In this document: piece by piece, positions 2,656 through 22,219 of the stretch
How positions within the stretch are numbered: position 1 is the stretch's first letter
Layout of the letters: each line of letters starts with the position of its first letter
Source: a virus
DNA: 22,219 nucleotides
Virus record (IMG/VR): IMGVR_UViG_3300009149_000320
Coordinates: 1 to 22,219 of that record
Strand: one strand, 5' to 3'
Translations under genes and position numbers: made by a program
Notes under the pieces: model-generated
Databases searched by the model: none
Seen by the model: only the letters and a program-made list of their open reading frames with translations
Told to the model about the DNA's origin: nothing

Positions 2656-2663
2656 TCTAAGTC

Positions 2664-2697
2664 TTATATAAAACCAGTTGACACTTTTTATATAAAA
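2664..2697 (+). promoter_or_regulatory. Two copies of TTATATAAAA before the head genes
   Basis: The 51-base gap between TerL and the next gene holds the 10-mer TTATATAAAA at 2664-2673 and again at 2688-2697, 24 bases apart, with TTGACA at 2678-2683 between them. No sigma70 -10 box sits at correct spacing after the TTGACA. The second copy runs into GAGG (2698-2701), the ribosome binding site of the next gene. An unusual phage promoter or regulator site is possible, but chance in an AT-rich gap is not excluded. Confidence 0.3.
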
Positions 2698-2706
2698 GAG
2701 GTTATC

Positions 2707-2904
2707 ATGGGATTTATGAAAGCATTATTCGGATTGCTCATACCGAAACTTAAGGCTGAAGGGAAGATAATAGACACCCCGGCAAATCCAGATATCGCAG
2801 AGACCCGTCGTATTCCAAACGTATTTAACACTCAACAAATATTCACGAGTCCATTAGGGGACACTTCGGAAAAGCCGGTTCGCAAAACCCGTTTAGGTGA
2901 GTAA
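2707..2904 (+). CDS. Small conserved-type protein between TerL and portal
   Basis: The protein has 65 residues, with an amphipathic start (MGFMKALFGLLIPKLK), a polar middle and the C-terminal pattern TSPLG..S.KPVRKTRLG. Short proteins with a similar TSPLG...RKTLLG-type tail sit between terminase and portal in many podoviruses; their function is not established. The ribosome binding site is GAGG five bases before the ATG. The gene ends in GAGTAA four bases before the portal ATG and its own last codons supply the portal ribosome binding site, so its translation is tied to that of the portal. A head-assembly role is inferred from place only. Confidence 0.7.
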   Translation: MGFMKALFGLLIPKLKAEGKIIDTPANPDIAETRRIPNVFNTQQIFTSPLGDTSEKPVRKTRLGE

Positions 2905-2908
2905 CACT

Positions 2909-4570
2909 ATGACACCCAAAGAGATCAAACAGCAATTTGAACAGATTGAGAATGAGCGCTCCGCCGTTGAATTGGATTGGAGAGAAGCAGAAAAATACTG
3001 TTATCCTCAAGCGGCTAATAGCGAAAGCCCGAAGACCGATCCAATCAATAAACAGGACCGATGGGAACTCGTTGATTCGACAGGAATCGAAGACACGTTA
3101 AAACTTTCCAAGGCGCTCGTATCTTTCATCGTACCTCCCAATCTTCCGTGGGTTGGGTTTGATATCCAATCCGGCGGGAAAAGTGTCTTCACAAGTGAAG
3201 ATGACGATCCATCCGATGAGCGGAAAGCATGGATAACGGATGTTTCGAAACGTGTCCAATGGGAATTTGACCAATCAAACTTCGGGAGAGAAACATCTCT
3301 TGCATTTAGGTCAACGGTTGTCTATGGAATATGCGGACTTTTATTCCAAGAGTATTTTGACATGGCCCGCGAACGGAAGCAATTCCATTTTACGTCATTA
3401 TCTCCTTGGGAAATCTATCCAATTGAGAATGAATGGGGAATCATTGATTCTAACTTTCGCAAGTACAAGATGAGTGCTGAGAACATCCTGAAAAAATGGC
3501 CCAAAGCAGAGTATGATGATAAATTTAAGGAAGCAGCAAAGAAAAATCCGTTTGAATACCACGACATCATTCACGTGGTAAAACCAAACAACAACTCAGA
3601 CGGGAAACGCTTTTCTTCTGAATCTATTCTACATGGGAAGGAATACCATCTTGAATCAGAACAATCGGCTTTTTATACAAACCCTTATATCATCGCCCGA
3701 TATGAGAGGTTGAGGAACAAGGTTTACGGAAATTCTCCAGCCATTGACGCGCTCCCATTTCTAAGAACTCTAAACAACTCTGTCCGCCTTCAAATGGCAT
3801 CTTATGATTCTTTGGTCAATGGGAAATGGGTACATGAAGAAGGATCGATTATTGATGGTGAATTAGATTTTTCAAGTTCAGTCAGTCATGCCATGACTGA
3901 TGTGAATGCTATCAAAAATCTGGCTGAACATACTGGTATCCAGGTTTCCGAAATGCTTATTTCTAAAAAACGGGAAGAGATCGACAGGATGTTGGGGATG
4001 GAAGACATTGAGATGCCAGCCCCGCAAGCGAGTCCTGCAACAGCCTTTGAGCACGCAAAACGGATCGAACAACAACTACGGCAACACGCCCCATTATACG
4101 GCGCAATACGAACAGAATTTCTTAGCCCTCTGGTCGAACGGGCTTTAGATATACTGCGAAGACGTAAAGATGGGAGCGAAATCAAGGAGTTCCCTGCTGA
4201 TTTGTCAAATCCGAATGAAGAACTCATTGCCGTCTTTAAGGGACCGTTAGCGAAATCGCAACAAATAGTCCGTTCTCAAGCAAGCGATGGGATTGTAGGC
4301 GAACTTATTTCAATTATTTCTCAGGCTCCAGCACTTTTGGAAATAGAACCCAAACTTGCTTTTTTAATCAATTACCACAAATATTTCAGTGACAAAGCCG
4401 ACGCTCATGGTGTCGATCCGCATATTTTCAATAAAAAATTGATTGTCGATATGAAGGTCAAAGAACTCCAGGAGGCCAAGCAAGCGCAAGCCGACGCAGA
4501 ACTCGCAGCAACGGCGGCAAAGGCGGCCAAAGACGGGGCACAGGCGTTTGAGCAAGGAGCTGTTCAATGA
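2909..4570 (+). CDS. Portal (head-tail connector) protein, T7 gp8-like
   Basis: The portal forms the dodecameric ring at the single capsid vertex through which DNA enters and leaves, and it docks TerL and the tail. The protein has 553 residues from the ATG at 2909, chosen because AGGTGA lies eight bases upstream; an in-frame GTG at 2897 is less likely. Its length matches T7-type connectors. The N-terminal block with WRE.EKYCYP (about 25-32), DSTG and the ALVSFIVPPNLPW segment is typical of these portals, as is the helical, Ala/Gln/Lys-rich C terminus (about 505-553). The MGMEDIEMPAPQASPATAFE region (about 360-380) fits the conserved area that precedes the long wing helices. Scaffold and capsid genes follow, as expected. 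Confidence 0.9.
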   Translation: MTPKEIKQQFEQIENERSAVELDWREAEKYCYPQAANSESPKTDPINKQDRWELVDSTGIEDTLKLSKALVSFIVPPNLPWVGFDIQSGGKSVFTSEDDDPSDERKAWITDVSKRVQWEFDQSNFGRETSLAFRSTVVYGICGLLFQEYFDMARERKQFHFTSLSPWEIYPIENEWGIIDSNFRKYKMSAENILKKWPKAEYDDKFKEAAKKNPFEYHDIIHVVKPNNNSDGKRFSSESILHGKEYHLESEQSAFYTNPYIIARYERLRNKVYGNSPAIDALPFLRTLNNSVRLQMASYDSLVNGKWVHEEGSIIDGELDFSSSVSHAMTDVNAIKNLAEHTGIQVSEMLISKKREEIDRMLGMEDIEMPAPQASPATAFEHAKRIEQQLRQHAPLYGAIRTEFLSPLVERALDILRRRKDGSEIKEFPADLSNPNEELIAVFKGPLAKSQQIVRSQASDGIVGELISIISQAPALLEIEPKLAFLINYHKYFSDKADAHGVDPHIFNKKLIVDMKVKELQEAKQAQADAELAATAAKAAKDGAQAFEQGAVQ

Positions 4571-4773: not shown

Positions 4774-4777
4774 AACG

Positions 4778-7055: not shown

Positions 7056-7089
7056 TCGGGCAACCCCGTAGAAAGGAAGGATCAAGATT

Positions 7090-7701
7090 ATGTGCATTAA
7101 ACGAATTCTAACAGTGTGTTTATTCGCTCTATTCTTTACCCCTGCTGTATCGTTTGCAACTGATTCAATGCCCTGGACCGAAAGCGTTCCCGACGATACC
7201 TATTACGCAGAAATTGGTATTGGAAATGCAACCGCAACGTCAACGTGGGCTGTCCAAATCCCCAAGGATGCAAGATGGGCGAGTATTTGGATCAAACCAG
7301 GGACACGTGCTCTAGTACAACAGATTGGCGCTAGCGGTGTGAATCTCATTAACGGAGCCATTGCCAACGCTACGTTTATGATTCAAATGTCTCCATTTGC
7401 TACTCCCGTCAATACTGCTACGCTCGGTGGCGCAACGGCGGTTATCGGGGGCGCAACTACTCCGTGGGCCGGATTTCTGATTCCGAGTCGGACTATTGTT
7501 TATGGGGCGTCTCCGCAGGTTGCCGCCAATCCGTCGAAATGGTCGGATAATACGGCTACTCCGTTCACAAATGGAATGTGGCCAGCGATTACGAACTACG
7601 GTCTGTATAACGTCGAAACTTACGCGAATCGTTGGTTCTGGATTATAAACGATCGTTCTGGTGTGTCCGTGGTAAACACCGTCATTGTACGGTTCAAGTA
7701 A
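7090..7701 (+). CDS. Secreted or surface protein with signal peptide, between capsid and tail genes
   Basis: The protein has 203 residues, with an AAGGAAGGA-type ribosome binding site about ten bases before the ATG. The N terminus is a textbook signal peptide: MCIKR, a hydrophobic core (ILTVCLFALFFTPAV), then SFA before TDS, so cleavage after residue 23 is likely. The mature part is beta-rich, with Gly, Ala, Thr and Asn (ATATSTWAVQIPKDARW, TLGGATAVIGGATTPWAG), as in head decoration or fibre-like domains. Most virion proteins stay in the cytoplasm, so a signal peptide here is odd. It could be a decoration protein with a signal-like hydrophobic start, or an exported protein acting on the host envelope. 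No family is recognised. Confidence 0.7.
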   Translation: MCIKRILTVCLFALFFTPAVSFATDSMPWTESVPDDTYYAEIGIGNATATSTWAVQIPKDARWASIWIKPGTRALVQQIGASGVNLINGAIANATFMIQMSPFATPVNTATLGGATAVIGGATTPWAGFLIPSRTIVYGASPQVAANPSKWSDNTATPFTNGMWPAITNYGLYNVETYANRWFWIINDRSGVSVVNTVIVRFK

Positions 7702-7711
7702 GGAGTGAATT

Positions 7712-8353
7712 ATGGCTACGGTCTTGGTTAACGAGCTTGCTCTGTTTGTCAACCCTGCCTTGGTTATGCTGGGGGCGGATACGCTGATCGCCCTCAGCGT
7801 ATCCGCTCCTGAAACCATTCAAAACCTCGCATCGATTACATTCTTGGGATTGGTTGAAGAGGTTTTGATGGAGGCGAACTGGGTCGATGTCCAGAAGCGA
7901 GACAGTTCTTTAACGGCGGATAGTAATCATGTCGCTGATGAATTCCCGTATGGATACGCATTGCCTTCGGACTTCGTTCATCTTGTCGGCGAACCCCGGT
8001 ATATCGGCGCGGGCGTGGTTCCCAAAGGCCAGAAGCATTGGCGAGTAAATGGCACAAAGTTGGAGACTTCTTGCCTGGGGCCTGACATCCTCTATGTCTA
8101 CAAAACGAGCGATGCGGTGGATGCAGGAACGGATGATGCGTATTACACGCTGATGAAAGCGCCGCTTCGAGCAGCGATTATTGCAAAATTGATGGCTGCT
8201 TGGGCTGCTCCGGTTGCAGGTCACGACCCGATCAAGTATGAGCAACTTTACCGTCTCAAGTTGAATTCGATGCGAACCTTGAACGCCAAGCAATCCCCAC
8301 CGGCACAAATGTCTCCAAACACCTTAATGAATATGAGGCAATTCCATGCCTAA
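7712..8353 (+). CDS. Tail tubular protein A, gp11-like (head-tail adaptor)
   Basis: This protein forms the ring between portal and nozzle in T7-like tails. It has 213 residues, similar to T7 gp11, and starts after AAGGAG (7700-7705). Typical features are an N-terminal helical block (LVEEVLMEANWVDVQKRDSS), the central FPYGYALPSDFVHLVGE segment (YxYPLPSDF in relatives), the short beta part around HWRVNGTKLET and DILYVYKT, and a helical C-terminal part with LRAAIIAKLMAAWAAPV. It overlaps the next gene by eight bases, which couples production of the two tube proteins. Position before the gp12-like gene supports the call strongly. Confidence 0.85.
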   Translation: MATVLVNELALFVNPALVMLGADTLIALSVSAPETIQNLASITFLGLVEEVLMEANWVDVQKRDSSLTADSNHVADEFPYGYALPSDFVHLVGEPRYIGAGVVPKGQKHWRVNGTKLETSCLGPDILYVYKTSDAVDAGTDDAYYTLMKAPLRAAIIAKLMAAWAAPVAGHDPIKYEQLYRLKLNSMRTLNAKQSPPAQMSPNTLMNMRQFHA

Positions 8354-11300
8354 ATTGAACCTCCATCCTGTGCTGAACAACTTCACGGGAGGTTTGATTT
8401 CTCCGGCGGTTCAGGCACGGGCTGAACTCGTGCCGGTTGACCACGGGTGCAAACAGGCGGAGAACGTTATCTTTTTGCCGCAAGGTGGGTTCGCCCGTCG
8501 AGGCGGGTTCATGTATGTTGGGGACTCAGCCCAGCCCACCGATTCAACAAAGAAAGTTCGTATCATCCCTTTTGCTTTCGCCGAAACCCCTACCCAATCC
8601 TATATCCTTGAGTTCAGCGCACTGAAGATGCGGGTTTATTGGGGTGGGGATAGGGTTCCGGTTCTGGATTCCAGTGTTGCTTCCAATACGGTCGTTTTTA
8701 AGGGTTCTGGACAAAACGACATGTATACCAATGGTGGAAGTTTTGCATATACCGGGACGTTTGCTTATACCTATAAAGTAAAGATAGACGGCACCGGAAC
8801 GCCTGACACCTATTCATGGTACAAAAACAATGTTTTGAAAGCGAGTGAGCAAAGTTGTTCGGATTCAGAGGTAGAACTTGAAGACGGCGTTTATATTGTC
8901 TTCGGTGAGACAACAGGCCATACGGTTGATGACTATTGGGTAATCACGTTTGATTCAGACCGCTACGAGTTGGCGACGGTTTATGATGAAGCCAGCATAC
9001 CGCTTCTGCGCTACGCTCAATCGGGCGATAGGCTCTATCTCGTGGATGGCACAAATGAACCGCAGGTATTAACCCGGTCCGGCCACAACAGTTGGGCGAT
9101 AGAAACAATTTCTATTTCGGGAGAGCCATTTTCGACAAAGAACAATTCTCGATATTCATTTTATCGTTACCATGACGTTTATCTCGGCAAACATGCAGCA
9201 GGTCATGTGATTGATGGACAAAATTCGCTTGAGAAATTCTACGATATATCTTCTGGCGAATCTGGAGGGCCAGAATATCTCGCTACAGGTAAATACACAA
9301 ATGACGATGCTGAAGGAATTTCCACAGAACGCGGCATATCCTTTATGTATACAGGTTACGGAGATAGTTATCCTGATGGCCCCGATGCGCTTGTTGATGC
9401 TCTTGCAAGCAGCTTTACGGGAGATTATCTATATAATATTTTTCTGAAAATGGATGGAACAATAAAGATACCGTATGCGGGTGATTGGTATTTTGCATTG
9501 AACGCTTCACGATATGCCGACTTTGCGTTCCAAAATGAAGATAATTTTCTATTGCAATTATACGGATATCGTCATTTACTGGTTCTTCCTGGTTATCGTG
9601 TGCAATATGAAAATTTCACAGATGAAAAAGGTACAAATCAAAAAAGAATATCCACAAAACAAACGAATTTGGGAGCGCATGAATATTCGTATTGGGGCCG
9701 CATGATGGCTCATAATACTGTTGGGTGGGGGTATGATCTTGCTTGGAGACTTGGTGGCGATATTGTGTTGGGTGGCGATCCAGATGTCGCACCTTCCGGG
9801 AAATTAAGTTTATATCAATTACGTGAATACAACACTTATGTCAAGCACGTATCAAACGATAATGAAAACTGGTATGGAAACCGGTGTTTAGAAGTCCAGA
9901 TATTTATGGATTCAGACACAACTTGGGGATGGAAATATAAAGAAATAACAAGTTTCGATTCAAGCGGACCTGTTTATAGTGGCGAATATGTAACTATTAA
10001 TACTGAATATGGCGTATTTACAAATTATCAACTCAACGATCCGATTGGGGGTGCGTCTGGTCCATTTGAGGGTGACGGCCAAATTGCCGATATCGATTGG
10101 GATGATTCCGATCCGGAAGTGATGGGACTTGCTGATGGGATGACATGGACATTTCGTGTTGGATTTCTTCCTATTCCTGGATCAGCGTTTATCAATACTG
10201 ATTTAACGGAAGAAACAACTTATCCGAAAGTCGTGACGATCAGCGATAACCGCCTTTGGTTTTTTAACTCTTCTGGACGGCCAAGCGCAGCGTGGGCCAG
10301 CAAGGTTGACCAGTTTACGAACTTTGTTGAAGATGCGGTTACACTAAAAGATGACGATGCTCTCTCGTTCACATTGAGTTCTAACCAGATCGATCCGATC
10401 CGATGGGCGAAGCCTGGGCGTCAAATGATTATCGGGACGGCATCAATGGAATACACGATCAAATGGCCGAATGGATTCCCCTCACCGCTCGAAGTCCCCG
10501 AAGTAAAGCCCAACACCTATTACGGCTCAAAGTTCGTTGACCCCGCTCAGGCGGCGAATATTATCGTCTTTGCAGAGAAATCCGGTCTCCGGTTGCGGTC
10601 TTATGGATATCGATTCGACATTGATGGGTATTCGGGAACCGATGACAGCGTTCTTGCGTATGAGGAAATATCCGCCGGAATCAAAGAACTTGCCTATCAA
10701 CAGGCCGGGGATATTGGATATATCAGCAGTCAAGACGGGGTCTATGCCGAATTTTCTGGCCTTGTTCTTCCGATCACAAATGCCCTTTGGATTATTACCG
10801 ACACCGGGAAACTCAAAGGAATTACACTCGAACCCGAACACAAGGTTCTGGCGTGGCATGAACACACGGATGATGCCACCGTGCCAGCCGTATTTGAATC
10901 AGTGGCGACTATCCCAGGGGCCACCGGCGATGAGGTTTGGGTTGTCGCTTTCAGGGGTGGCAACCGATATATTGAGGTTCTGGATAATACCGCTCCGATG
11001 GATGGATGGGATCGAAACCTGGATGCAGGAAACCAACCCTCGGATGCTTCAGATTTTACTGGAACGGTCGAAACTATTCCGTTTGAGATTATCGAAGGAA
11101 AAGATTCAACGATCGCACACAAAAAGCGTTGGGTTTATGTGGATGCCGACGTTTTGGCTGCTCAGAATCTCGGCGTTGCACGTGGAACAGTGGATTATGA
11201 CGCAAAAAAGCAAATATTCTCCACCATGACAAGCCCCGGCGTTGCCAGAAAAATACTCTTTGGATGGGATAAAATAGCAACACTTGTCTTGAAGGCTCCA

Positions 11301-11369
11301 GGGACTTCCGGGATTGCTTATCCAACGATTGTGAGAGCTATTCAGGGAAGGATTCAGATTAATGAGTAA
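8346..11369 (+). CDS. Tail tubular protein B, gp12-like (tail nozzle)
   Basis: The nozzle is the distal tail tube through which DNA leaves. The protein has 1007 residues, longer than T7 gp12 (about 790), so it carries extra beta-rich insertions (about residues 110-210 and 290-560). The start NNFTGGLISPAVQARAEL, followed by GCKQAENVIFLPQGGFARR, matches the conserved opening of nozzle proteins (F..GE.SP....R.....Y..G...l.N....P.GG..RRpG). A later NRLWFFNSSGRPSAAWASK and a WAKPGRQMIIGTASMEYTI stretch (about 637-705) are also typical of this family. GAGG seven bases upstream supports ATG 8346. The insertions could hold host-binding functions, since no tail fibre gene is seen nearby. Confidence 0.88.
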   Translation: MPKLNLHPVLNNFTGGLISPAVQARAELVPVDHGCKQAENVIFLPQGGFARRGGFMYVGDSAQPTDSTKKVRIIPFAFAETPTQSYILEFSALKMRVYWGGDRVPVLDSSVASNTVVFKGSGQNDMYTNGGSFAYTGTFAYTYKVKIDGTGTPDTYSWYKNNVLKASEQSCSDSEVELEDGVYIVFGETTGHTVDDYWVITFDSDRYELATVYDEASIPLLRYAQSGDRLYLVDGTNEPQVLTRSGHNSWAIETISISGEPFSTKNNSRYSFYRYHDVYLGKHAAGHVIDGQNSLEKFYDISSGESGGPEYLATGKYTNDDAEGISTERGISFMYTGYGDSYPDGPDALVDALASSFTGDYLYNIFLKMDGTIKIPYAGDWYFALNASRYADFAFQNEDNFLLQLYGYRHLLVLPGYRVQYENFTDEKGTNQKRISTKQTNLGAHEYSYWGRMMAHNTVGWGYDLAWRLGGDIVLGGDPDVAPSGKLSLYQLREYNTYVKHVSNDNENWYGNRCLEVQIFMDSDTTWGWKYKEITSFDSSGPVYSGEYVTINTEYGVFTNYQLNDPIGGASGPFEGDGQIADIDWDDSDPEVMGLADGMTWTFRVGFLPIPGSAFINTDLTEETTYPKVVTISDNRLWFFNSSGRPSAAWASKVDQFTNFVEDAVTLKDDDALSFTLSSNQIDPIRWAKPGRQMIIGTASMEYTIKWPNGFPSPLEVPEVKPNTYYGSKFVDPAQAANIIVFAEKSGLRLRSYGYRFDIDGYSGTDDSVLAYEEISAGIKELAYQQAGDIGYISSQDGVYAEFSGLVLPITNALWIITDTGKLKGITLEPEHKVLAWHEHTDDATVPAVFESVATIPGATGDEVWVVAFRGGNRYIEVLDNTAPMDGWDRNLDAGNQPSDASDFTGTVETIPFEIIEGKDSTIAHKKRWVYVDADVLAAQNLGVARGTVDYDAKKQIFSTMTSPGVARKILFGWDKIATLVLKAPGTSGIAYPTIVRAIQGRIQINE

Positions 11370-11796
11370 ACTGACCCTCCATCAAGTGGAAGATCGTGGC
11401 GAAATTCGGATGATTGATTACCGAGAAAGTGATCGATACGCAATAGAAGACATGGAACAGGTCTTTGATAATGATGGGAAACTCTGGATATACGAATTTG
11501 AAGGAACGCCCATGGCCATTGGCGGAGTGTTGCCGGTCAGGGAAGGTGTCGGGCATTTCGTCTTTGCTTGTTCTGAATCGGCTTTTGACCGGCCATTCGA
11601 TTTGATCCATGACATGAAGAGGATTATTCACGCTTGCGAGAGGACTTATTCTCTTTTTCGGTTACAGTTTATGGTTGAAGAAGGATTTGAAGCACGACTT
11701 CGGTTTGCCGATTTTCTTGGATTCAAGGTAGAGGGAATTCATCCGAAGTCAGGGCCGAATCAGACGACATGGATGTCATTCGGCAAGGTGGGATGA
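11362..11796 (+). CDS. gp13-like internal virion protein with acetyltransferase-like fold
   Basis: The protein has 144 residues and overlaps the end of the nozzle gene by eight bases; AAGGA lies nine bases before the ATG. Length and position match T7 gp13, a virion assembly or ejection factor whose sequence resembles GNAT acetyltransferases. The GNAT-like features here are the strand LWIYEFEGTPMAIGGVLPV (about 42-60), the helix with RPFDLIHDMKRIIHACE, and the ending FADFLGFKVEGIHPKSG, like the A...y..lGF pattern of GNAT proteins. The usual acetyl-CoA loop (Q/RxxGxG/A) is not evident, so catalytic activity is doubtful and a structural role is likelier. Confidence 0.7.
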   Translation: MSKLTLHQVEDRGEIRMIDYRESDRYAIEDMEQVFDNDGKLWIYEFEGTPMAIGGVLPVREGVGHFVFACSESAFDRPFDLIHDMKRIIHACERTYSLFRLQFMVEEGFEARLRFADFLGFKVEGIHPKSGPNQTTWMSFGKVG

Positions 11797-11797: not shown

Positions 11798-12235
11798 ATG
11801 GGATTTCTCGCTCCTTTAGGGATCGCTTTAGCAGCTGCAGGAACCGTCGTTCAAGGCGTTTCACAGTATCAGCAAGGGAAATACAACGCCGCCGTCGCAA
11901 GCCAACAAGCAAAACAAATTATGATTGCTCGCGGGATCGATGCCGAACAGCAACGATTCTCGTTCGAACGGATGCTTGGGCGTAACCGGGCGATAACAGG
12001 GGCAAGCGGTATCACGATGGAAGGTTCTCCGATCATCGCGGAGATGTCGAATATCTTCCAGTTTGAGAAAGATCAATTAATCCAGGATTACAATGCTCAG
12101 ATTCAGGCCGGGCAAGCGAAGTCTCAGGCTAAGATGTCAAAGGCAATGGGAACGGCTGCTTTGGGAACCTCCTTATTGAATTCCGGGGCGTTCGCTGCTG
12201 GGAGGATGTCCTTACTGAGTAATCCGGCTAAGTAA
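11798..12235 (+). CDS. gp14-like internal virion (ejection) protein
   Basis: The protein has 145 residues and starts one base after the preceding stop, with GGTGGGA as ribosome binding site. The hydrophobic, alanine-rich start (FLAPLGIALAAAGTVVQGV) is followed by a long helical section (QYQQGKYNAAVASQQAKQI, then FEKDQLIQDYNAQIQAGQAKSQAK) and a small hydrophobic C-terminal part. This composition and order match T7 gp14 and its many relatives, which leave the capsid first and form a channel in the outer membrane during DNA ejection. The GASGITMEGSPIIAEM segment is a widespread pattern in these small core proteins. Function is by family and position; membrane insertion is consistent with the hydrophobic start. 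Confidence 0.8.
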   Translation: MGFLAPLGIALAAAGTVVQGVSQYQQGKYNAAVASQQAKQIMIARGIDAEQQRFSFERMLGRNRAITGASGITMEGSPIIAEMSNIFQFEKDQLIQDYNAQIQAGQAKSQAKMSKAMGTAALGTSLLNSGAFAAGRMSLLSNPAK

Positions 12236-12255: not shown

Positions 12256-14796
12256 ATGAGACTTCAGCATTTCGTTTCAGGAACGGCGGCAACCCGCGAA
12301 GTTCCGAATGCCATACAGCAATCTCCATTCCCGACGGTTGCCCCCGGTTTAGCCAGCCTTGGCAGTGATCTAATTCAACTGGCAGAAAAGGAACAGCGCA
12401 TTCTTCAGAATGCCGAGATTAACCAAGCAAAAAACATAGTCGATGTCGGTTTGAAACAGGCGGACCTCGCGTTTGATAGCGGCGAACTCGATATTCCCGG
12501 ATTAACCGAAGAATATAAAGCGGTTTTCTCTAATGCAAACAAAGCAATTAAATCACGCGGGGCGCAGAATGTAATCGGCCCACGCCTGGAAGCATCTCAA
12601 AAACTTGCCGAATTGCGTATCAAAGGTCTCATGCGGTTGGAGGTCGTAAACTTTGCAGATAACCAACATCAAGAACGCCTTCAAATTTTAGAGGATCAAT
12701 ACATAACTGCCGGGACTCAGGAAGAAAGACGCGCAATCCAAGCGCAGATGGAAGCCGCCGATCAAAAGATGGTTGACGATTCGGTCTATTCCGAGAAGGA
12801 CCAAACAAAACGTATTGATGAATGGAAGGATCACGCCACGGTGGCGGCGGTAGAACGGGCAATTCTTGACGATCCCCACGAGGCTTATAGAGCAATAAAA
12901 AAAGACGAGTATGATCTTGATGAAGAATTAAAAACAAAACTTCTTGTATCAGCAAAAAAATATATAAATACACAAGAAAGAGAACAGGCGATGCTATTGG
13001 GTGAGATGATCGAACAAAACCCATTTGGCGAATACAACATTGATAATAATAGGAGCATCAACGAGACCCAAAAACTTTCATTGAAAAATTATCAAAAGAG
13101 AGCGCAAGATGCACAACAAGAAATAATGCGAATCAAGGCGGATCGTGATGAGCGCAAAGTCATCATGCAGCAACAACGTGAGATTAGTAATGATTCAAGA
13201 GAATTTTATAATAAAGTAGAGTCAGGAAACCTCACACCACTTGATGTGCAAAATCATATATCGAAAATGAACCGTGCATGGGAACAAGGGACTATTACTG
13301 ACGCGGGGGCGCAACGAGAGATAGAATCTGCTAAACAAACGCTTCTTGGTATCCATGTCAATAAAATGATAGGTCTCATTGGATCGGACGGGGACTTGTC
13401 ATTAGCAAAAGATTATTTTAAAAACAACGTGTCAACAGACGAGACGCTTGGACCGGATGAAAAGCAGGACGCGCAAGACGCTTTTGCAAAGATGGAAAGT
13501 ATGACCGGAACGGGCCAAGACCTTAATCTCCGCCGTAGACTCGCTATCGCTACTATTCTGGCAAAAACACAGGGACTGCCGGATGTTCAGTCTATTGTTC
13601 CCGAAATTATAGACCGATTGCAGAACTCAACAAATCCTGCGTCTATTATGTCTGCGTTCAATGGTCTTGTAACGGTAATGGGTGAAGAGGATTTAGCCTA
13701 TCAAAAGTATTATGGACAGACATATAAAGTCGATCCAAAGGGTGCGGGGGATGACAATAAAGCAAGAAAGAAGGCATCCGATTTAGAATTGGATTATATT
13801 ATCAAAGAAAGAATGAAGGACAAAGGAGAAATCCAAAACGAAGATTATATAAAAGAAACCGCTCGAATGATTGTCGATCATGCCTTTGAAAAAAATTATG
13901 TCGCGGAACCCACACGCGCTTTAATCCGCGCCGGGAATGGGATGGATGATCCAGAAACAACCCGGCAGGTACTTGAATTGCTCTTTGACGCGAGAACAAA
14001 CCGTCCAACAGTTGCGGCCCAAATACCGGATGTAGATTACAATAACCTTCTTCCGCTACTCATTAAAATGCAACAAGGAAAAATCGATCTAAAAACAACG
14101 AACGGTCCACAATTAAAGGGGTTGATGGATGCAAGTCTTGAACAAAGCCAGGCCATCGATATCCCAGGGCGAACAAACCAATGGCAATTAACGGAGAGAG
14201 ACAGAATAACATCATTGGGAAGAAAGTCCGATATCGACAATGAATCTGATTCTTCTTTCGGTTGGTTACTCAATAAAGCACGAACCCTTTATCTTTATGG
14301 TGGAATAACCAGCATGGATGATGCGGAAGATGAAGCCGTAAGGCAATTCAATGTTGCTTATGGTAAATCGACCGTTGGAGATAAACGAAAGATGTTGTTC
14401 CCACCAACTTATTTCAATCCCGAATACGATCAAGCAACGGGGAATAAGGAGTTGAGAGGCTATTTGGACAATATCCGATCTTATGATGATACCAATCCAT
14501 ACAAGGGGAAACGATTCATTATTGAAAGCGGACCCCAAACGGAAGCGACTTCTTTCTATACGGTATTTGTGGATACCGATGGAGACGGTTCGTATGAAAC
14601 GGCAGCAATGACTGACATGATGCAAATGGTTCATTGGACGCCATTCGATCTTGGAGGAACCCCATCCATGATCGACGAATTAGACCGTTCAATACTGGAT
14701 AAGGTGCAAGAAAAAATCAAGGAAGTCAGAAAGCAAAAGGCCGCAAGACAGGAAAGAGATAAATCCGAATCGTTGTTTGGAGTGTTCCCAGGTTAA
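12256..14796 (+). CDS. gp15-like internal virion (ejection) protein
   Basis: The protein has 846 residues, somewhat longer than T7 gp15 (747), with AAAGGA well placed before ATG 12256. It is mainly helical and charged throughout, with no membrane span, as in gp15, which forms the periplasmic tunnel of the ejection complex. The opening FPTVAPGLASLGSDLIQLAEK, with VDVGLKQADLAFDSG soon after, is typical of gp15-like proteins. A central section rich in Glu, Gln and Arg (about 200-330) is coiled-coil-like, and a C-terminal beta-containing part (FIIESGPQTEATSFYTVFVD, about 755-774) precedes a lysine-rich tail. No lytic transglycosylase motif is visible. It sits between the gp14-like and gp16-like genes in the standard order. 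Confidence 0.8.
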   Translation: MRLQHFVSGTAATREVPNAIQQSPFPTVAPGLASLGSDLIQLAEKEQRILQNAEINQAKNIVDVGLKQADLAFDSGELDIPGLTEEYKAVFSNANKAIKSRGAQNVIGPRLEASQKLAELRIKGLMRLEVVNFADNQHQERLQILEDQYITAGTQEERRAIQAQMEAADQKMVDDSVYSEKDQTKRIDEWKDHATVAAVERAILDDPHEAYRAIKKDEYDLDEELKTKLLVSAKKYINTQEREQAMLLGEMIEQNPFGEYNIDNNRSINETQKLSLKNYQKRAQDAQQEIMRIKADRDERKVIMQQQREISNDSREFYNKVESGNLTPLDVQNHISKMNRAWEQGTITDAGAQREIESAKQTLLGIHVNKMIGLIGSDGDLSLAKDYFKNNVSTDETLGPDEKQDAQDAFAKMESMTGTGQDLNLRRRLAIATILAKTQGLPDVQSIVPEIIDRLQNSTNPASIMSAFNGLVTVMGEEDLAYQKYYGQTYKVDPKGAGDDNKARKKASDLELDYIIKERMKDKGEIQNEDYIKETARMIVDHAFEKNYVAEPTRALIRAGNGMDDPETTRQVLELLFDARTNRPTVAAQIPDVDYNNLLPLLIKMQQGKIDLKTTNGPQLKGLMDASLEQSQAIDIPGRTNQWQLTERDRITSLGRKSDIDNESDSSFGWLLNKARTLYLYGGITSMDDAEDEAVRQFNVAYGKSTVGDKRKMLFPPTYFNPEYDQATGNKELRGYLDNIRSYDDTNPYKGKRFIIESGPQTEATSFYTVFVDTDGDGSYETAAMTDMMQMVHWTPFDLGGTPSMIDELDRSILDKVQEKIKEVRKQKAARQERDKSESLFGVFPG

Positions 14797-14797: not shown

Positions 14798-17779
14798 ATG
14801 CCTATTTACACAGATACCGATACAATACGGGCGATCCGGCGTTTACGGCCCACGATGGGGGCATCGAAACAGTTGACAGCCATCACTGCCCCTGAAGTAG
14901 CATCTTCTGGAGAGTTCTTTTCCGCAGTATTCCGCGCCACGTGGATGGATGATATCAAAGGTTTGGCCTCTATTTTCACCGCACGTAAACCCATTGATTA
15001 TGACTACAACGTGGTCGGTGATATCCCAGAAGATATGGCCCCGTTTTCTGAAGAATACTCGGATTCTTCAAACAAAGAAGAAACCGATTTTATAACGGCA
15101 CGACTTCGTCAGCAGATGGAGGATAACCTGGATATCGAAAGTTGGGGATGGACTGGAACTCCGATACATTTGGCTGCTGAATTTACAAGTCCTGTTTGGC
15201 TAGCCGCGTTTTACGCACTCCCCGTCAAAATGTTTGCAAGTGCTGGAGTAGAGGCAAAGAGATTCGTAGTATTTGCAGACATGATGAAAACTTATAAAGC
15301 CGCAAGAGCAGGGGAAACGATTGTTGCCGGTGCTCAAGTGGAGAAACTATTTGAAGAAGCAAAAGGAATCGGAGAAATCCTGTCTTCTATTGGAGCGAAA
15401 GAACCAATCAAATATGGTTGGATGAAAGGCTTCGCCGAAGGGGCTGCCAGAATGGGGTTCGCCTCCGCAGTCGATGAAGCGGTTGTCCAGCAAGCCCCGA
15501 ATCTTGAAACGTTTGGAGACTCTCTGAGAAATATTGCGGTACAATCAGTCTTCGGCGGACTTCTTCATGCCGGCATTGGAAGATACAACGTAAAGAATGT
15601 TGAAGTTTTTAGAAAAAAAGCACTCGCCGAATTCGACGCATACGAAAAAGACTTGAAGGGTTTTAAAGATTATGTCATGGGAGAATTCTACAAATCTCCG
15701 GCAGGATTTCAGCGATGGGAAGGAACACGCTGGACCCCGGCGGATGAATATCCGCAACCTTTCAAAAAACTTGGCGGAACTGATATCTATGGGAAGCCAG
15801 TAGGTCAAACACTGGAAGGAAAAATCGGACCCGCCGTTGATGATTTTGCAGCCGAAGCAACAAATTTCAAAGATAAAATTTATGAGGCAATTTCAAAAGG
15901 TGAAGTCACTGGAAAGCAAGCGAAAGAGTTATTTAAGCATCATGGAATCAAAGATTATGATAAAAGTAAATTAAGAAAACCAAAACCGGGGAAACCAGTT
16001 ACTGTTAAAGACATCGATGCAGTAATGAAAGACAGTTTTCACGCCTTAACCCCGCAAGAATTTCAAGACATCTCTCTGGGTATGGAATTTGACGGCGTTA
16101 CTAGGCCGTTGGCTTATTATCGTGGATTGATCGATGATCTGGTCGCCGATCCTTCCAATACAATGTTCCGAACACCAGGAGGCGAAATCCAGCGACCTTT
16201 TTTTGTCACACCGGAAGGGACCGCTTCGGAGACAATGCCTCCAGTTCCCACCCAATATCCGGCTTCCCCGCCAAAGGGCGAAGGTCCGGTCACACCGGAA
16301 GGGACCGCTTCGGAGACAATGCCTCCAGTTCCCACCCAATATCCGGCTTCCCCGCCAAAGGGCGAAGGTCCGTTTCGTCACGTCCGCTTGAGCGATGGAA
16401 CGGAAATATTTGGAGCGAAGGGACAAACCTATCCAGAAATCATTAAATCCCTGGAACATATTGGCGTTGATCTTGATGAGATTGAAAGTCCATTGAAGAA
16501 GGTTATCAAACAGGTGGCGCCGAAACCAGTCATTACCAAAGTACCAGAAGCACCGAAAGCCCCGGCCAAGAAACCTGCGATCACAAGCATAAGCACTCTA
16601 AATGAGGTTAATGATGCTTATCCAACTGCTCCCAATAAGGTTGATGGTAGAATTGTACGTTCAGAAATACCGAATCAATCTTCCATTTATTCAACCATTG
16701 ACAACCCCGAAATCCTGTCAGGAGTACGTGTTGTTCCGATGTCTGAATTTCAACTCACTGGGCGTCACTATTCTTCCGAAGGTAGTAAAAGAATAAAAGA
16801 ACTTGCAGAGGAAATTAAAGAAACCAATGAAATCAACCCATTGATAGTTGTCGTTGACGAGGAAGGCCCATATATTCTCGAAGGTGCAACTAGAGCAGAG
16901 GCACTATTTAGACTTGGTGCAACATCGTTCCCTGCACAAGTTGTGATTGACAACGATGTTTCAAATATTCCATCAGAAAATCCCGTAACAAAAGCCCCGG
17001 AGGTAGTCCCGGCGGAACCAAGTAAAGAATTAATCAAAAACATTGAAAACGAGATCGAAAAAACAAAAAGCCTCATGGAAGAGTTCGACGAATCCGCGAA
17101 GAAGAAAATGGATAAGTTGAAGCCTGCAAGAGAGCAACTTCGCCCCGCGCAAATGCAACGGGTGAAAGACTTGAGAGCGTTCGAGTTCAAGATAGACAAC
17201 ATGAAAGAAGCCAAAAGGGAACTCGAATTTGGGAATAGATTTCTTGCGAAGACTCTTCTTGACAGGATTGGGATGAAGCATGATATAAAGATTGAACCCG
17301 GAGAAACCGTTACCGCCTACAGGGGATCAAGGGGCGATTATGAGGCAATTTCCACGCATCCATATTACGTAGGGGCGACTTGGTTTACGGACACATTCAA
17401 GGGGGCGCATTCTTATGCGGGCGAAGAAGGCGGCAAAGTAACAACAGCAGAACTTAACATCCATAAAATATTTGACCAAGCAAACCCAAAGCATCTCGAT
17501 CAAGTAATGCCGGAGGTTAGACAGGCTTTCAAGAATTTACAGAAACAGGGACACGTCACGTCACAAGAATTTGAAACATTGCTCGAAAGGATTCGATTAG
17601 GAAAGCACTACCTTTTAACGCAAGAGCCTAATGTCATAAAGAAACTCAGAGAACTTGGATTTGACTCGATCCTCAACAGGGAGATTGGGTGGGACATAGG
17701 TGTTCTTTCCAAGGAAAATATCAAAGTAACGAAGCAATCTACGAAGGATACAGGTAGGGCCGAACCGAAAGCGAAATAA
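14798..17779 (+). CDS. gp16-like ejection protein with ParB-like and ADP-ribosyltransferase-like domains
   Basis: The protein has 993 residues from ATG 14798, one base after the gp15-like stop; a TTG 21 bases earlier is an unlikely start. Residues 1-260 contain hydrophobic or amphipathic stretches (HLAAEFTSPVWLAAFYALPV near 125-145; DSLRNIAVQSVFGGLLHAGI near 241-260), like N-terminal parts of large gp16-type proteins. Residues 470-525 are two identical 28-residue proline-rich repeats. Residues about 640-725 resemble a ParB/sulfiredoxin-like domain (INPLIVVVDEEGPYILEGATR, R699, then EALFRLG). Residues about 834-980 resemble an ADP-ribosyltransferase: YRG at 841-843, WFT at 862-864, AHSYA at 870-874, LGFDSIL from 953. 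Phage polyvalent proteins combine such domains and enter the host with the DNA. Domain calls are by eye; activity is inferred. Confidence 0.7.
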   Translation: MPIYTDTDTIRAIRRLRPTMGASKQLTAITAPEVASSGEFFSAVFRATWMDDIKGLASIFTARKPIDYDYNVVGDIPEDMAPFSEEYSDSSNKEETDFITARLRQQMEDNLDIESWGWTGTPIHLAAEFTSPVWLAAFYALPVKMFASAGVEAKRFVVFADMMKTYKAARAGETIVAGAQVEKLFEEAKGIGEILSSIGAKEPIKYGWMKGFAEGAARMGFASAVDEAVVQQAPNLETFGDSLRNIAVQSVFGGLLHAGIGRYNVKNVEVFRKKALAEFDAYEKDLKGFKDYVMGEFYKSPAGFQRWEGTRWTPADEYPQPFKKLGGTDIYGKPVGQTLEGKIGPAVDDFAAEATNFKDKIYEAISKGEVTGKQAKELFKHHGIKDYDKSKLRKPKPGKPVTVKDIDAVMKDSFHALTPQEFQDISLGMEFDGVTRPLAYYRGLIDDLVADPSNTMFRTPGGEIQRPFFVTPEGTASETMPPVPTQYPASPPKGEGPVTPEGTASETMPPVPTQYPASPPKGEGPFRHVRLSDGTEIFGAKGQTYPEIIKSLEHIGVDLDEIESPLKKVIKQVAPKPVITKVPEAPKAPAKKPAITSISTLNEVNDAYPTAPNKVDGRIVRSEIPNQSSIYSTIDNPEILSGVRVVPMSEFQLTGRHYSSEGSKRIKELAEEIKETNEINPLIVVVDEEGPYILEGATRAEALFRLGATSFPAQVVIDNDVSNIPSENPVTKAPEVVPAEPSKELIKNIENEIEKTKSLMEEFDESAKKKMDKLKPAREQLRPAQMQRVKDLRAFEFKIDNMKEAKRELEFGNRFLAKTLLDRIGMKHDIKIEPGETVTAYRGSRGDYEAISTHPYYVGATWFTDTFKGAHSYAGEEGGKVTTAELNIHKIFDQANPKHLDQVMPEVRQAFKNLQKQGHVTSQEFETLLERIRLGKHYLLTQEPNVIKKLRELGFDSILNREIGWDIGVLSKENIKVTKQSTKDTGRAEPKAK
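16205..16372 (+). repeat. Perfect tandem duplication of 84 bases inside the ejection protein gene
   Basis: Bases 16205-16288 are repeated without a single difference at 16289-16372. The unit is 28 codons, so the frame is kept, and it encodes a proline-rich linker containing PPVPTQYPASPPKGEGP. The unit also holds small inverted repeats, such as CGCC(AAAG)GGCG. It separates the N-terminal part from the ParB-like region, so it acts as a spacer. Identity at the DNA level points to a recent duplication or to ongoing length variation. Confidence 0.95.
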
Positions 17780-17781: not shown

Positions 17782-20484
17782 ATGCCGAAAATTCCGATCA
17801 AAGGGCTGAGCAAAGAACTCGCTTCTAAACTCAGCGAACTCGGACTTGATGAAATCTCCGGGAATCTTTCCAGGTTGCGGTCAGCCGCTTCTGCGAAGGG
17901 GTTCCCTCTACCTGAATCTGTCCATATCCAATCGACTGAAGGCACTGGGCGGATGAAAATACCCAAAATAAAGGAAACAAAAAAACCCGCCATTGAAAAA
18001 ATAACTGGTCTTACCTCGCCAGTCTCTAAAATCCTCGAACCCACAAACCCGGTACAAAAAGGTGTATTGAAATTTACTACAAAAACATTGGCGGGAATGC
18101 ACTGGTCCCCCGATGTCTTCTTTTATGATCGGTGGGATGGATTTCCAAAAGAAGTACAGGCGGCAGTCAAAAACTTGTCCGAAATTGCATTTTATAAAAC
18201 AACCGAAGCGGGTGGGGCTGATATAAAACCTTCCGTAGAAAGTCTTGCTAACTATAAAATTCCTGGGCTGGAAGAATCCGCGTTGAAGGGATTTACGAAT
18301 TCTTATTTTCATTATCAAAAACGCATGGCCGGTGAGTTGCCGGAAGCAGACCCGAAATTTCCGTTGATGCAAACTGCTGTACAAAATGCTCAAGCATACA
18401 AAGGAAAACTCACGGGAGAAGAAAAAGGACTCTCTAAATATGGGTTTGCCGAACTTGTTTCAAAGAAAATGCGCCGGTTCACTTCGACAACTGATTTTGA
18501 TCCAGAAGTGAAGGCGATAATAGAACACTTACGAAAAAATATATACGACCCAATTTTGGAGAAGGCTGTTAAAGTCGGTCTTGTCGATAAAAAGGTCTTA
18601 GAGAACAAAAAATTTGTCGGTAATTTTGTTCCACAGATTTGGGATCAAATAGAAATAAGACGCAAAAGCAACGATTACATTGATTTCTTGATAAGAAACC
18701 ACGCGGCGAATACAAAGAAATCCTTTGAGGCATTAACGCCCGAAGAAGCAGAACAATCTTTTGCTGACGCCACAAAAACAAAAAACAGAATCTTATCCAG
18801 CCATGATGGATTCCATCGAGATTATGAGTTGTCTCAGGGGAAGAAGAAACACGCCAAAACGAGGGAAGTTATTATTCACGATAGCATGTTGGAAGAAGCC
18901 GAAGAAAAATATTTGGTCAACGATATCAGAATAATAACTACGAAATATATCAAGGCAATGATTCCGCAGACAGAATTTATGGAACGGTTTGGAACATTAA
19001 ATTTAGACAAGCACATGGATGCGATCGATCTCGCCTATCAGAAAAAAATAAAGGAATCACCCCCTGGTAAACAATACGCTATTGAAACCGAAAGAGTAAT
19101 AACGAAAAAATATATTCAGCATTCCTTTGATAAGATTATGGGAACCGCCGGGATTCCAGACGATCCACATTCCTTATTGATGCTTGTCAATAAAGCGTTG
19201 CTGACGGGGGCGGCTGTCACAAAACTAGGTGGAGTGGTTATTACTTCATTCGCTGACGAATGTCTCCAGGTTGCTCATAATGGCTTACGTCCTTACGCTC
19301 GGTTTATTAAAGATTATGTAAGACACCCGGTTGCAATGAGTAAGAACCGGAAGGAACTTTCCGATCAAGCAAATATCGCTCAATTCTACTTATCTCAAAT
19401 GTATTCCCAGTATGCAAGCACTGAGACAACATCCTCTTTCGTTCATAGATTTCGTCGTCCAACGAGTATGGCAGAAATGAAAGGTTCGGCGCGGGATGCT
19501 GTCGAAATAGCCATTGATAAGGTTGGACGTATCGGGGGCCTTATGACGCTCCTGGGACACTGGGATCATTTCAACCAAACAAATGTCGCCATAACATCCG
19601 CCAATTCATTGATCCGCCATGCGCTCCAAAAAGAGTTAGGTGTTCCATTAGAAGATAAGGAGGTAGCGTGGCTTGAGCATATATTCGTCAATGCGGAAAG
19701 TGACTTGGAACACGTTGCCGATATGTATAGGAAATATGGGGATAAATCCGACACCGGACTCATGTTCCCAAACTTTGCTTTGTGGGAAGAGCACCCGGAA
19801 TTAGTCGAACGAATCCTTGTTGGACTAAACCGGATTGCAAAAGATACTGTGAATTATGCTTCTTCGCTTAGTAAGCCCCCCTGGTGGGATCATCCGGCAG
19901 CAAAAGTTCTAACGCATTTTATGAATTTTCCCTGGACCTTCCCGACGAAAGTATTGATTCCGGCACTTCAGAATCCAGCAACAAGCCATATTCTTCCCGC
20001 CTTATTGTTTGGTACGGTGTTGGGGGCAACGATTTATACGATCAAAGAAGTCCTAAAAGGAAATGATATCAAAGATGTTGTGAAAGACAAAAATAAACTT
20101 CTCCTTGAAGGCGTACTGCGGAGTGGGTTTCTATTTATGTTAGAAAGACCAAATAATCTTGTTACCAATCTTACTGGTGGGGACGTTGGATTGCATAATC
20201 TGTTCGGGACAGATGTACCGGCTGGATATTCCGGTAGAGGATATCAGGCCCCAAACAATTATGATCCGATGTGGGCTATTTCTAATATATTAGGGCCTTC
20301 GGTTGGAACCCTGAACGATAGCCTGAAGGCAACCAATGGGATGTATACTTATTTTAACGATCCATCGAAATTCAAACCTTCCCAGGCACGGGCAATGCGC
20401 CGATTGATGTTCATGCAAAATCACTTCCTGCTCGGAAAAATGTTCGACAAGATGGAAGAAGAAATGGTTGATAGCGCAAGATGA
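17782..20484 (+). CDS. gp16-like internal virion protein, C-terminal type
   Basis: The protein has 900 residues and starts two bases after the previous stop with only a weak ribosome binding site, so reinitiation is likely. It is mostly helical. A hydrophobic part with LLTGAAVTKLGGVVITSFAD (about 472-491) and a membrane-like stretch HILPALLFGTVLGATIYTI (about 736-754) stand out, as do PPWWDHPAAKVLTHFMNFPW (about 698-717) and a C terminus with MRRLMFMQNHFLLGKMFD. These features match the C-terminal half of large gp16-type ejection proteins (A.ltn.aD followed by a G...R region), which span the inner membrane and pull in the genome. Together with the upstream gene it would supply the full gp16 role (T7 gp16 has 1318 residues). 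No peptidoglycan-cutting domain is visible in either. Confidence 0.75.
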   Translation: MPKIPIKGLSKELASKLSELGLDEISGNLSRLRSAASAKGFPLPESVHIQSTEGTGRMKIPKIKETKKPAIEKITGLTSPVSKILEPTNPVQKGVLKFTTKTLAGMHWSPDVFFYDRWDGFPKEVQAAVKNLSEIAFYKTTEAGGADIKPSVESLANYKIPGLEESALKGFTNSYFHYQKRMAGELPEADPKFPLMQTAVQNAQAYKGKLTGEEKGLSKYGFAELVSKKMRRFTSTTDFDPEVKAIIEHLRKNIYDPILEKAVKVGLVDKKVLENKKFVGNFVPQIWDQIEIRRKSNDYIDFLIRNHAANTKKSFEALTPEEAEQSFADATKTKNRILSSHDGFHRDYELSQGKKKHAKTREVIIHDSMLEEAEEKYLVNDIRIITTKYIKAMIPQTEFMERFGTLNLDKHMDAIDLAYQKKIKESPPGKQYAIETERVITKKYIQHSFDKIMGTAGIPDDPHSLLMLVNKALLTGAAVTKLGGVVITSFADECLQVAHNGLRPYARFIKDYVRHPVAMSKNRKELSDQANIAQFYLSQMYSQYASTETTSSFVHRFRRPTSMAEMKGSARDAVEIAIDKVGRIGGLMTLLGHWDHFNQTNVAITSANSLIRHALQKELGVPLEDKEVAWLEHIFVNAESDLEHVADMYRKYGDKSDTGLMFPNFALWEEHPELVERILVGLNRIAKDTVNYASSLSKPPWWDHPAAKVLTHFMNFPWTFPTKVLIPALQNPATSHILPALLFGTVLGATIYTIKEVLKGNDIKDVVKDKNKLLLEGVLRSGFLFMLERPNNLVTNLTGGDVGLHNLFGTDVPAGYSGRGYQAPNNYDPMWAISNILGPSVGTLNDSLKATNGMYTYFNDPSKFKPSQARAMRRLMFMQNHFLLGKMFDKMEEEMVDSAR

Positions 20485-21173
20485 TGTATGGATCGTGTAA
20501 CTCTCAGATATTCGGCGTCCATGAGCAAGCGTCCGGCTTCGGGGTTGTCGGAGATACCCTCACCTATTACGGGGGGATCGATGAGTGGGCGAAAGCCGCC
20601 GACTCAACCAACGTCCGTATTATGCGAACCAGGCAAGGCGGGGAACAATGGGGATGGAATTACCCTGATGGTGTGATCGATCCCACAATAAGGCTCATCT
20701 GTGATTCAGTGAATGTTCCCCAATTCGTTTGGGAAGGAGAATCTTACCCGGACAAAGACCGCCGTGCATACGCCCCGCTCATAACGACTGACGACCGTGG
20801 CGCGTCCATAATCCCCGCCGGTGGGCACGCTGTAACTATGACCCCAATCGGAAAGACGATTCTTGAATCTCTCGAAACTGATACGATAGCCGCCTCGATT
20901 CCCTCCTGGACGGCAGATACAGTATGGACGAATGTTACCGATACATCTGGATTACTAAAGTTTATCTTCATGCAGGAATGCTCACGGGTTGGGTTGAAAC
21001 CGATTCCGAATCTCGCAGCAATCATGGCCGGGGTGAAAACCCCGAACGCCTACATCCATATTTGGCTGAAATCTGCAAGTCGAATTTTATATGCTCATTA
21101 CGGTCAGACATCTATCCCATTGATTTTGGGAAAGTTAGAAATCGACTCCGACGGTATTGTTTCCCTCGCGTAA
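20481..21173 (+). CDS. Unknown protein closing the late operon
   Basis: The protein has 230 residues and begins within the end of the gp16-like gene (ATGA overlap); adjacent ATG codons at 20481 and 20484 are both possible. It has no signal peptide or membrane span. The first half carries aromatic and charged stretches (TLTYYGGIDEWAKAADSTN, RQGGEQWGWNYPDGVIDPT) and the second is beta-rich (TSIPLILGKLEIDSDGIVSL). I recognise no family. Its place after the ejection proteins, where many podoviruses encode tail fibre, tailspike or attachment proteins, makes a virion role likely. It is too short for a complete fibre, so it could be an adaptor or minor virion component. A gap with a new promoter follows. 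Confidence 0.7.
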   Translation: MMYGSCNSQIFGVHEQASGFGVVGDTLTYYGGIDEWAKAADSTNVRIMRTRQGGEQWGWNYPDGVIDPTIRLICDSVNVPQFVWEGESYPDKDRRAYAPLITTDDRGASIIPAGGHAVTMTPIGKTILESLETDTIAASIPSWTADTVWTNVTDTSGLLKFIFMQECSRVGLKPIPNLAAIMAGVKTPNAYIHIWLKSASRILYAHYGQTSIPLILGKLEIDSDGIVSLA

Positions 21174-22140: not shown

Positions 22141-22219
22141 AGGACACCAGTGACGTGGGGGGCAGGACACCAGTGACGTGGGGGGCAGGACACCAGTGAC
22201 GTGGGGGGCAGGACACCAG
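22141..22219 (+). repeat. 23-base tandem repeat at the right edge
   Basis: The unit AGGACACCAG-TGACGTGGGG-GGC is repeated exactly at 22141, 22164 and 22187, with a partial fourth copy from 22210 to the window end. The first copy is joined seamlessly to the hairpin region before it. There are no spacers, so it is not a CRISPR array. It may be a real variable repeat, part of a larger RNA or terminal structure, or the place where an assembly stopped in a repeat. Confidence 0.9.

What the first reader, a model, noticed from the sequence alone, without database searches (positions are those of the whole stretch)
14798..17779. Ejection protein carrying ParB-like and ADP-ribosyltransferase-like domains
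The gene sits where T7-like phages encode gp16, a protein that enters the cell with the DNA. Its C-terminal third looks like two enzyme-type domains: a ParB/sulfiredoxin-like part (R699 in ILEGATR) and an ADP-ribosyltransferase-like part (YRG 841-843, WFT 862-864, LGFDS from 953). Such combinations are known from phage polyvalent proteins, which are thought to act against host defences right after entry. Here the effector would be built into the split gp16 function, so the phage could modify a host target at the moment of infection.
Basis: partly seen in the sequence, partly recalled or inferred. Interest (0 to 1): 0.8.

Follow-up and report, generated by a model that had tools for sequence, protein, structure and literature searches.

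The report
Phage entry protein carrying enzyme-like domains
A short-tailed phage has split its DNA-entry protein (T7 gp16 type) in two and hung a ParB-like and a divergent ADP-ribosyltransferase-like domain on the first half, probably to deliver them into the host cell as the genome enters; the kind of protein is known, but this placement recurs in other phages and has hardly been described.

Summary
The gene at 14798-17779 encodes 993 aa. Residues ~78-266 are the N-terminal part of a T7 gp16-type ejection protein, and the next gene (17782-20484) is its C-terminal part, so gp16 is split. About 700 aa of cargo sit at the break: a Pro-rich linker, a ParB/sulfiredoxin-like domain (~640-724, R699 kept) and an ADP-ribosyltransferase (ART)-like domain (~835-983). 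The ART-like domain matches a family profile built without it at 27.6 bits (best of 2,000 shuffles 9.4), and AlphaFold2 gives a confident ART fold. The window belongs with phage polyvalent proteins. A cultured Vibrio phage (1.182.O) and metagenomic phages carry clear ART-PolyVal domains at the same gp16 break. Foldseek also places this fold in the pre-ejectosome protein of cyanophage A-4L (PDB 9k3a). The break lies just after the first gp16 membrane segment, where T7 gp16 is thought to enter the cytoplasm. Packaging, injection and targets are inferred, not shown. Verdict: real; a new variant of a known kind.

The parts
14798..17779 (+). gene for the 993-aa protein: gp16 N-half plus ParB-like and ART-like cargo
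   Evidence: ORF and translation; domain searches
15029..15595 (+). gp16 N-terminal region with first hydrophobic segment (residues ~78-266; hydropathy peak 133-151)
   Evidence: profile of nine gp16-type N-termini, 32.3 bits; phrog_342 278-365; hydropathy
16205..16372 (+). perfect 84-bp tandem duplication in the Pro-rich linker (28-aa unit at residues 470 and 498)
16715..16969 (+). ParB/sulfiredoxin-like domain (residues ~640-724); R699 codon 16892-16894
   Evidence: phrog_1033 E 4e-5; ParB_N E 0.017; L146 homologue 41% identity
17015..17242 (+). charged segment between the two domains (residues ~740-815)
   Evidence: composition; weak spectrin-like matches only
17300..17746 (+). ART-PolyVal-like domain (residues ~835-983); R842 codon 17321-17323, D956 codon 17663-17665
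17782..20484 (+). gp16 C-terminal half (900 aa), second gene of the split
   Evidence: phrog_342 545-1227 E 1.3e-32; Vibrio phage 1.254.O gp16 residues 281-1040 E 4e-39
12256..14796 (+). gp15-slot protein (846 aa), by position only
   Evidence: synteny; no significant similarity found
11798..12235 (+). gp14-type internal virion protein B
   Evidence: E 1e-9 to 'putative internal virion protein B' of Podoviridae sp. ct8d5349
2897..4570 (+). podovirus portal (head-tail connector); module marker
   Evidence: PF12236 E 8e-65

Best explanation
This is the N-terminal half of a split T7 gp16-type ejection protein that has become a polyvalent protein. A flexible linker, a ParB/sulfiredoxin-like domain and a divergent ART-PolyVal-like domain are inserted just after the first gp16 membrane segment; the cytoplasmic hub and second membrane segment of gp16 are made from the next gene. 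Most likely the protein is packaged in the head with the other core proteins, leaves through the portal in an unfolded state, inserts in the inner membrane, and exposes its C-terminal cargo in the cytoplasm as the first phage DNA enters. There the ParB-like domain would bind nucleotide or DNA (possibly as an NTP-regulated nicking nuclease), and the ART-like domain would modify, or only bind, a host target. Shown here: the domains, their order, the gp16 split, the ART fold, and recurrence of the ART at the same gp16 break in other phages. Inferred: packaging, ejection, topology, enzymatic activity, targets.
For: Two-part match to gp16: phrog_342. ART: Pfam, window-free profile, shuffles, confident AlphaFold2 model with ART-fold matches. 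ParB: phrog_1033 plus an IMG/VR relative whose protein also carries ART and DarA_C. Same placement elsewhere: Vibrio phage 1.182.O (ART E 3e-17) and L022 split gp16 with ART in the first half; L186 gp16 N-half plus ART; L158 ART gene directly before a gp16 C-half; L111 likewise, its N-terminus off the contig. Seven further contigs carry ART and an LPD38-type gp16 C-region in one polypeptide. L023 has the same split and N-half, but coiled coil where the ART is. Cyanophage A-4L gp27, whose structure is in a solved pre-ejectosome (9k3a_B), has a YHGT ART-like segment. T7 topology: TMH I 243-410, then the gp16-C part presumed cytoplasmic (PMC8954989); the gp16 N-terminal profile aligns weakly to T7 310-375.
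Against: The ART-like domain scores below Pfam's cut-off and lacks the strand-1 histidine. No close relative of the whole protein was found in any collection searched. The ParB model is of low confidence (pLDDT 40). No data show that the protein is in the virion. Similarity of this gp16 type to T7 gp16 itself is weak, so the topology transfer is tentative.
Confidence: 0.65

Rival explanations
1. The ART-like domain is a decayed or non-catalytic copy that keeps the fold but no longer transfers ADP-ribose; it may bind NAD+, ADP-ribose or a partner, or be passive bulk on gp16.
For: Strand-1 His is Arg in the window, against His in 45 of 46 unselected family members and all nine other rows of A1. 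The strand-2 position is Trp, and other common family residues differ too (the A3 positions inside the search motif are conserved by selection).
Against: The last strand's Asp (D956) and Tyr873 are kept; R in strand 1 is used by the R-S-E ARTs such as T4 Alt (PMC5512222); the ORF is intact and the fold is confidently predicted.
Confidence: 0.3
2. The added domains serve the ejection machine itself: the ParB-like domain grips or clamps the entering DNA and the ART-like domain is a structural or regulatory module, with no host target.
For: T7 gp16-C binds DNA and is thought to clamp the entering genome (PMC8954989); ParB/Srx domains bind nucleotide and DNA; 9k3a shows an ART-like segment inside an assembled pre-ejectosome protein.
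Against: The cargo is dispensable among relatives: L023 has the same split N-half with coiled coil instead, and Vibrio phage 1.254.O has unsplit gp16 with neither domain.
Confidence: 0.12
3. The protein is made late but not packaged or not delivered; it acts during assembly or lysis.
For: No virion data for this phage.
Against: gp16-type N-terminus, neighbouring gp16 C-half and syntenic core genes; a comparable protein is virion-borne in A-4L.
Confidence: 0.1
4. The ParB and ART resemblances are chance.
For: Single curated profiles score below their cut-offs.
Against: Shuffle control, fold prediction and independent recurrence at the same gp16 break.
Confidence: 0.03

Closest known systems
Vibrio phage 1.182.O._10N.286.46.E1 NVP1182O_16 (566 aa) and NVP1182O_17 (MG592548)
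   Same: Split gp16; first half = gp16 N-terminus plus ART-PolyVal domain; second gene = gp16 C-half
   Different: No ParB-like domain found; canonical YHGT ART well above cut-off; 22% identity to the window ART-like domain
Phage polyvalent proteins with Tox-ART-HYD2/ART-PolyVal domains (Iyer et al. 2017, PMC5512222), prototype Roseovarius Plymouth podovirus 1 vRNAP
   Same: Virion-type late proteins combining ART and ParB-type domains, predicted to be injected
   Different: Prototype is fused to an N4-type RNA polymerase; the window is fused to gp16, has no metallopeptidase match, a ParB-like domain that does not match the ddrB-ParB model, and R for the first His
Cyanophage A-4L gp27 pre-ejectosome protein (PDB 9k3a chain B)
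   Same: Ejection-type protein matched by the window ART model (Foldseek E 4.6e-4) and holding a YHGT segment
   Different: Single 1717-aa protein; ART-like segment near the C-terminus; no detectable similarity to this gp16 type by blastp
T7 gp16 (NP_042004)
   Same: Place in the gene order; internal-virion-protein family phrog_342; hydrophobic segments early and late
   Different: T7 gp16 is one gene with an N-terminal transglycosylase and no cargo domains; sequence similarity weak
T4 Alt
   Same: Head-packaged ART injected with DNA (PMC5512222)
   Different: R-S-E clade, different architecture; no homology claimed

Membership tests
ART-PolyVal (PF18760; Tox-ART-HYD2 clade) | profile match above the curated cut-off | tested here: not met
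   24.1 bits against 31.2
ART-PolyVal (PF18760; Tox-ART-HYD2 clade) | ART fold and detectable homology | tested here: met
   AlphaFold2 pLDDT 83.8; Foldseek MbcT 1.2e-4, 9k3a_B 4.6e-4, PARPs at E about 0.01-0.05 with probability mostly 0.75-1.00; BFVD ART-PolyVal-like proteins; 27.6 bits to a window-free profile, shuffle best 9.4
ART-PolyVal (PF18760; Tox-ART-HYD2 clade) | His in strand 1 | tested here: not met
   R842; 45 of 46 unselected family members have His
ART-PolyVal (PF18760; Tox-ART-HYD2 clade) | Tyr in strand 2 | tested here: inconclusive
   W862 at the Y/F position; Tyr873 in the next helix
ART-PolyVal (PF18760; Tox-ART-HYD2 clade) | Asp in strand 5 | tested here: met
   D956
ART-PolyVal (PF18760; Tox-ART-HYD2 clade) | NAD+-dependent transferase activity | not testable with these tools
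   needs biochemistry
ParB/sulfiredoxin superfamily | sequence-profile match | tested here: met
   phrog_1033 E 4e-5; Pfam ParB_N only E 0.017, below cut-off
ParB/sulfiredoxin superfamily | conserved active-site arginine (GxxR) | tested here: met
   R699 in GATR; GLHR in the only homologue found
ParB/sulfiredoxin superfamily | alpha+beta fold | tested here: inconclusive
   pLDDT 40; strand and helix order plausible; leading Foldseek hits are nearly all ParB or sulfiredoxin but E >= 0.06
DdrB-like ParB (PF18763) | match to PF18763 | tested here: not met
   no hit
Phage polyvalent protein | large protein combining two or more inventory domains next to virion genes | tested here: met
   ParB-like plus ART-like in the internal-virion-protein cluster; its ParB relative lies with ART and DarA_C
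Phage polyvalent protein | packaged and injected | not testable with these tools
   inferred from position and relatives
T7 gp16-type ejection protein | N- and C-regions match the gp16 family in order, at the gp16 locus | tested here: met
   phrog_342 278-365 and 545-1227 across two genes; unsplit homologues in Vibrio phage 1.254.O and others
T7 gp16-type ejection protein | single polypeptide | tested here: not met
   two genes 2 bp apart; same split in Vibrio phage 1.182.O, L022, L023
T7 gp16-type ejection protein | N-terminal lytic transglycosylase | tested here: not met
   no such domain; the review says this part is not universal (PMC8954989)

The most novel reading that the evidence does not exclude
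The stretch just after the first membrane segment of gp16 is a recurrent cargo site. Different podovirus lineages have broken gp16 there into two genes and loaded the first half with varying effector domains (ART, ParB/Srx, perhaps kinase-like domains), making the DNA-entry channel itself the carrier that presents enzymes on the cytoplasmic face during genome entry. In the window the ART has an altered, Arg-based active site.
Probability: 0.4. Interest if true: 0.72.

Novelty: new variant of a known kind. Interest (0 to 1): 0.52.

Why it matters
ARTs were found in only about 3% of podoviruses (PMC9503650), and delivery has mostly been argued from gene neighbourhood and fusions. A break in gp16, right where T7 gp16 is thought to emerge into the cytoplasm and refilled with ART or ParB cargo in several lineages, gives a concrete and testable delivery route. 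A cultured Vibrio phage with a well-scoring ART at that site, and a solved pre-ejectosome whose protein carries the same fold, make the question directly approachable.

Tried and rejected
Direct searches with the whole protein or its domains in phage records, IMG/VR and genome contigs found no relative, so the family was reached through the Iyer prototype and a motif scan. My first motif pattern was two bases short: its 4 + 44 hits held no ART and serve only as a negative control; the corrected pattern gave at least 120 contigs, and 109 domain hits below E 1e-5. Because that set was picked with YHGT...F..FD, those positions say nothing about conservation; only unselected domains were used for the His/Arg count. 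ART-PolyVal was rare in bacterial genomes (2 of 249). The ParB alignment matched 15 of 398 genomes weakly, mostly over a fragment of the domain, and was not followed. PADLOC gave nothing. The chance-resemblance idea was rejected on the shuffle and fold results. 'DdrB-like ParB' was rejected (no PF18763 match). The A-4L structure paper (Hou et al. 2025, PNAS e2423403122, cited in PMC12810830) is not held.

Full report
OBSERVATION. The window is a 22,219-bp IMG/VR virus record holding the morphogenesis module of a short-tailed phage: large terminase, portal, capsid, tail and internal virion proteins. A second contig of the same virus (L002, 99.95% over window 1-8479) supports the assembly but does not reach this gene.

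GP16 IS SPLIT. Residues 85-184 match phrog_342 (internal virion protein with endolysin domain) at 278-365, and the next gene matches the same family at 545-1227 (E 1.3e-32). Vibrio phage 1.254.O has the unsplit form: its residues 281-1040 align to the window's second gene (E 4e-39) and its residues 92-143 to the first (E 0.006). A profile from nine gp16-type N-termini hits residues 78-266 at 32.3 bits, with nothing comparable in the neighbouring proteins. The two window genes are 2 bp apart and in different frames, so this is not one internal stop codon; the same split exists in Vibrio phage 1.182.O and in IMG/VR contigs L022 and L023. Between the two gp16 parts the window carries about 700 aa of added sequence.

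ART-LIKE DOMAIN (~835-983). Pfam ART-PolyVal E 6.6e-5 on the domain alone, 24.1 bits, under the 31.2 cut-off. A profile built without the window gives 27.6 bits; the best of 2,000 shuffles 9.4. The closest homologue found, a short IMG/VR protein (L134; Pfam ART-PolyVal E 1.9e-18), has phmmer E 2.6e-8 and 27% identity. AlphaFold2 with 41 sequences: pLDDT 83.8. Foldseek: MbcT (E 1.2e-4), the cyanophage A4 pre-ejectosome chain 9k3a_B (4.6e-4), then tankyrases and PARPs, weaker in E-value but mostly at probability 0.75-1.00; among viral models, many named ART-PolyVal. Phage polyvalent ARTs are described with a His-Tyr-Asp site (PMC5512222). The window has Arg842 for His, Trp862 at the strand-2 position, Tyr873 in the next helix, and keeps Asp956. 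Among family members found without selecting for the motif, 45 of 46 with that column filled have His and none has Arg. I therefore call it an ART-PolyVal-like homologue, not a canonical member.

PARB-LIKE DOMAIN (~640-724). phrog_1033 E 4e-5; ParB_N E 0.017. A 41%-identical domain occurs in an IMG/VR protein (L146) that also has ART-PolyVal and DarA_C, a domain named for phage P1 DarA. R699 and the surrounding GxxR are kept in it. The structure model is poor (two sequences, pLDDT 40), though the leading Foldseek hits are nearly all ParB or sulfiredoxin, at E 0.06 and worse.

RECURRENCE. Vibrio phage 1.182.O NVP1182O_16 is a gp16 N-half with an ART-PolyVal domain (E 3e-17) directly before the gp16 C-half; L022 is its relative (67% identity, ART E 7e-13). 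L023 has the same split and a homologous N-half but coiled coil in place of the ART, so the cargo is exchangeable. L186 (gp16 N-half plus ART) and L158 (ART gene directly before a gp16 C-half) repeat the pattern; L111 has an ART gene before a gp16 C-half but its N-terminus is off the contig. Seven further contigs join ART and an LPD38-type gp16 C-region in one polypeptide of 1,600-3,000 aa; that C-region type is that of Pelagibacter phage gp16-slot proteins. These counts come from one motif-selected sample and are not frequencies.

MECHANISM. In T7, gp16 crosses the inner membrane with TMH I (243-410), and residues 411-1118 are presumed to form the cytoplasmic hub (PMC8954989). The gp16 N-terminal profile aligns to T7 310-375, weakly (6.1 bits); the window's only strong N-terminal hydrophobic peak is 133-151, and the second gene has one at 733-758. 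Cargo placed after the first segment would thus be expected to face the cytoplasm. This is inference: packaging, ejection, topology and activity are untested.

PLACE AMONG KNOWN THINGS. Polyvalent proteins and head-packaged ARTs are known and were predicted to be injected (PMC5512222, PMC9503650). A library search found no paper that joins 'ejection protein' with 'polyvalent protein', but the key A-4L structure paper could not be read, so the ART there may already have been described. New here, as far as I could check, are the split-gp16 placement with ParB plus ART, the substituted first active-site residue, and the recurrence of ART at that break.

Noticed in passing
window 16205-16372: Perfect 84-bp tandem duplication (28-aa unit VTPEGTASETMPPVPTQYPASPPKGEGP twice) in the Pro-rich linker before the ParB-like domain; either a very recent duplication or an assembly effect.
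   Followed up: partly
window 22141-22219: 3.4 perfect copies of a 23-bp unit at the very end of the contig, possibly a terminal repeat region or an assembly edge.
   Followed up: no
window 11362-11796: Small protein similar to the 'putative acetyltransferase' (GNAT-type) that several podoviruses carry between the tail tube and internal virion genes (E 1e-7 to Pelagibacter phage Lederberg).
   Followed up: partly
L111:3-3419: ART-bearing protein before a gp16 C-half also contains a P-loop stretch (FTAGGTGAGKTTGINML) resembling zeta-type kinases, by eye only.
   Followed up: no
L146:7992-12131: Polyvalent protein of at least 1380 aa combining DarA_C, ART-PolyVal and a ParB-like domain of the window's type, next to a DnaJ-domain protein.
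   Followed up: partly
L200:20116-25269 (Anabaena phage A-4L gp27, PDB 9k3a_B): Pre-ejectosome protein annotated only as 'tail protein' has a YHGT ART-like segment at about residue 1425.
   Followed up: partly
window 20481-21173: 230-aa protein after the gp16 C-half with no match in Pfam, PHROGs or PADLOC.
   Followed up: partly
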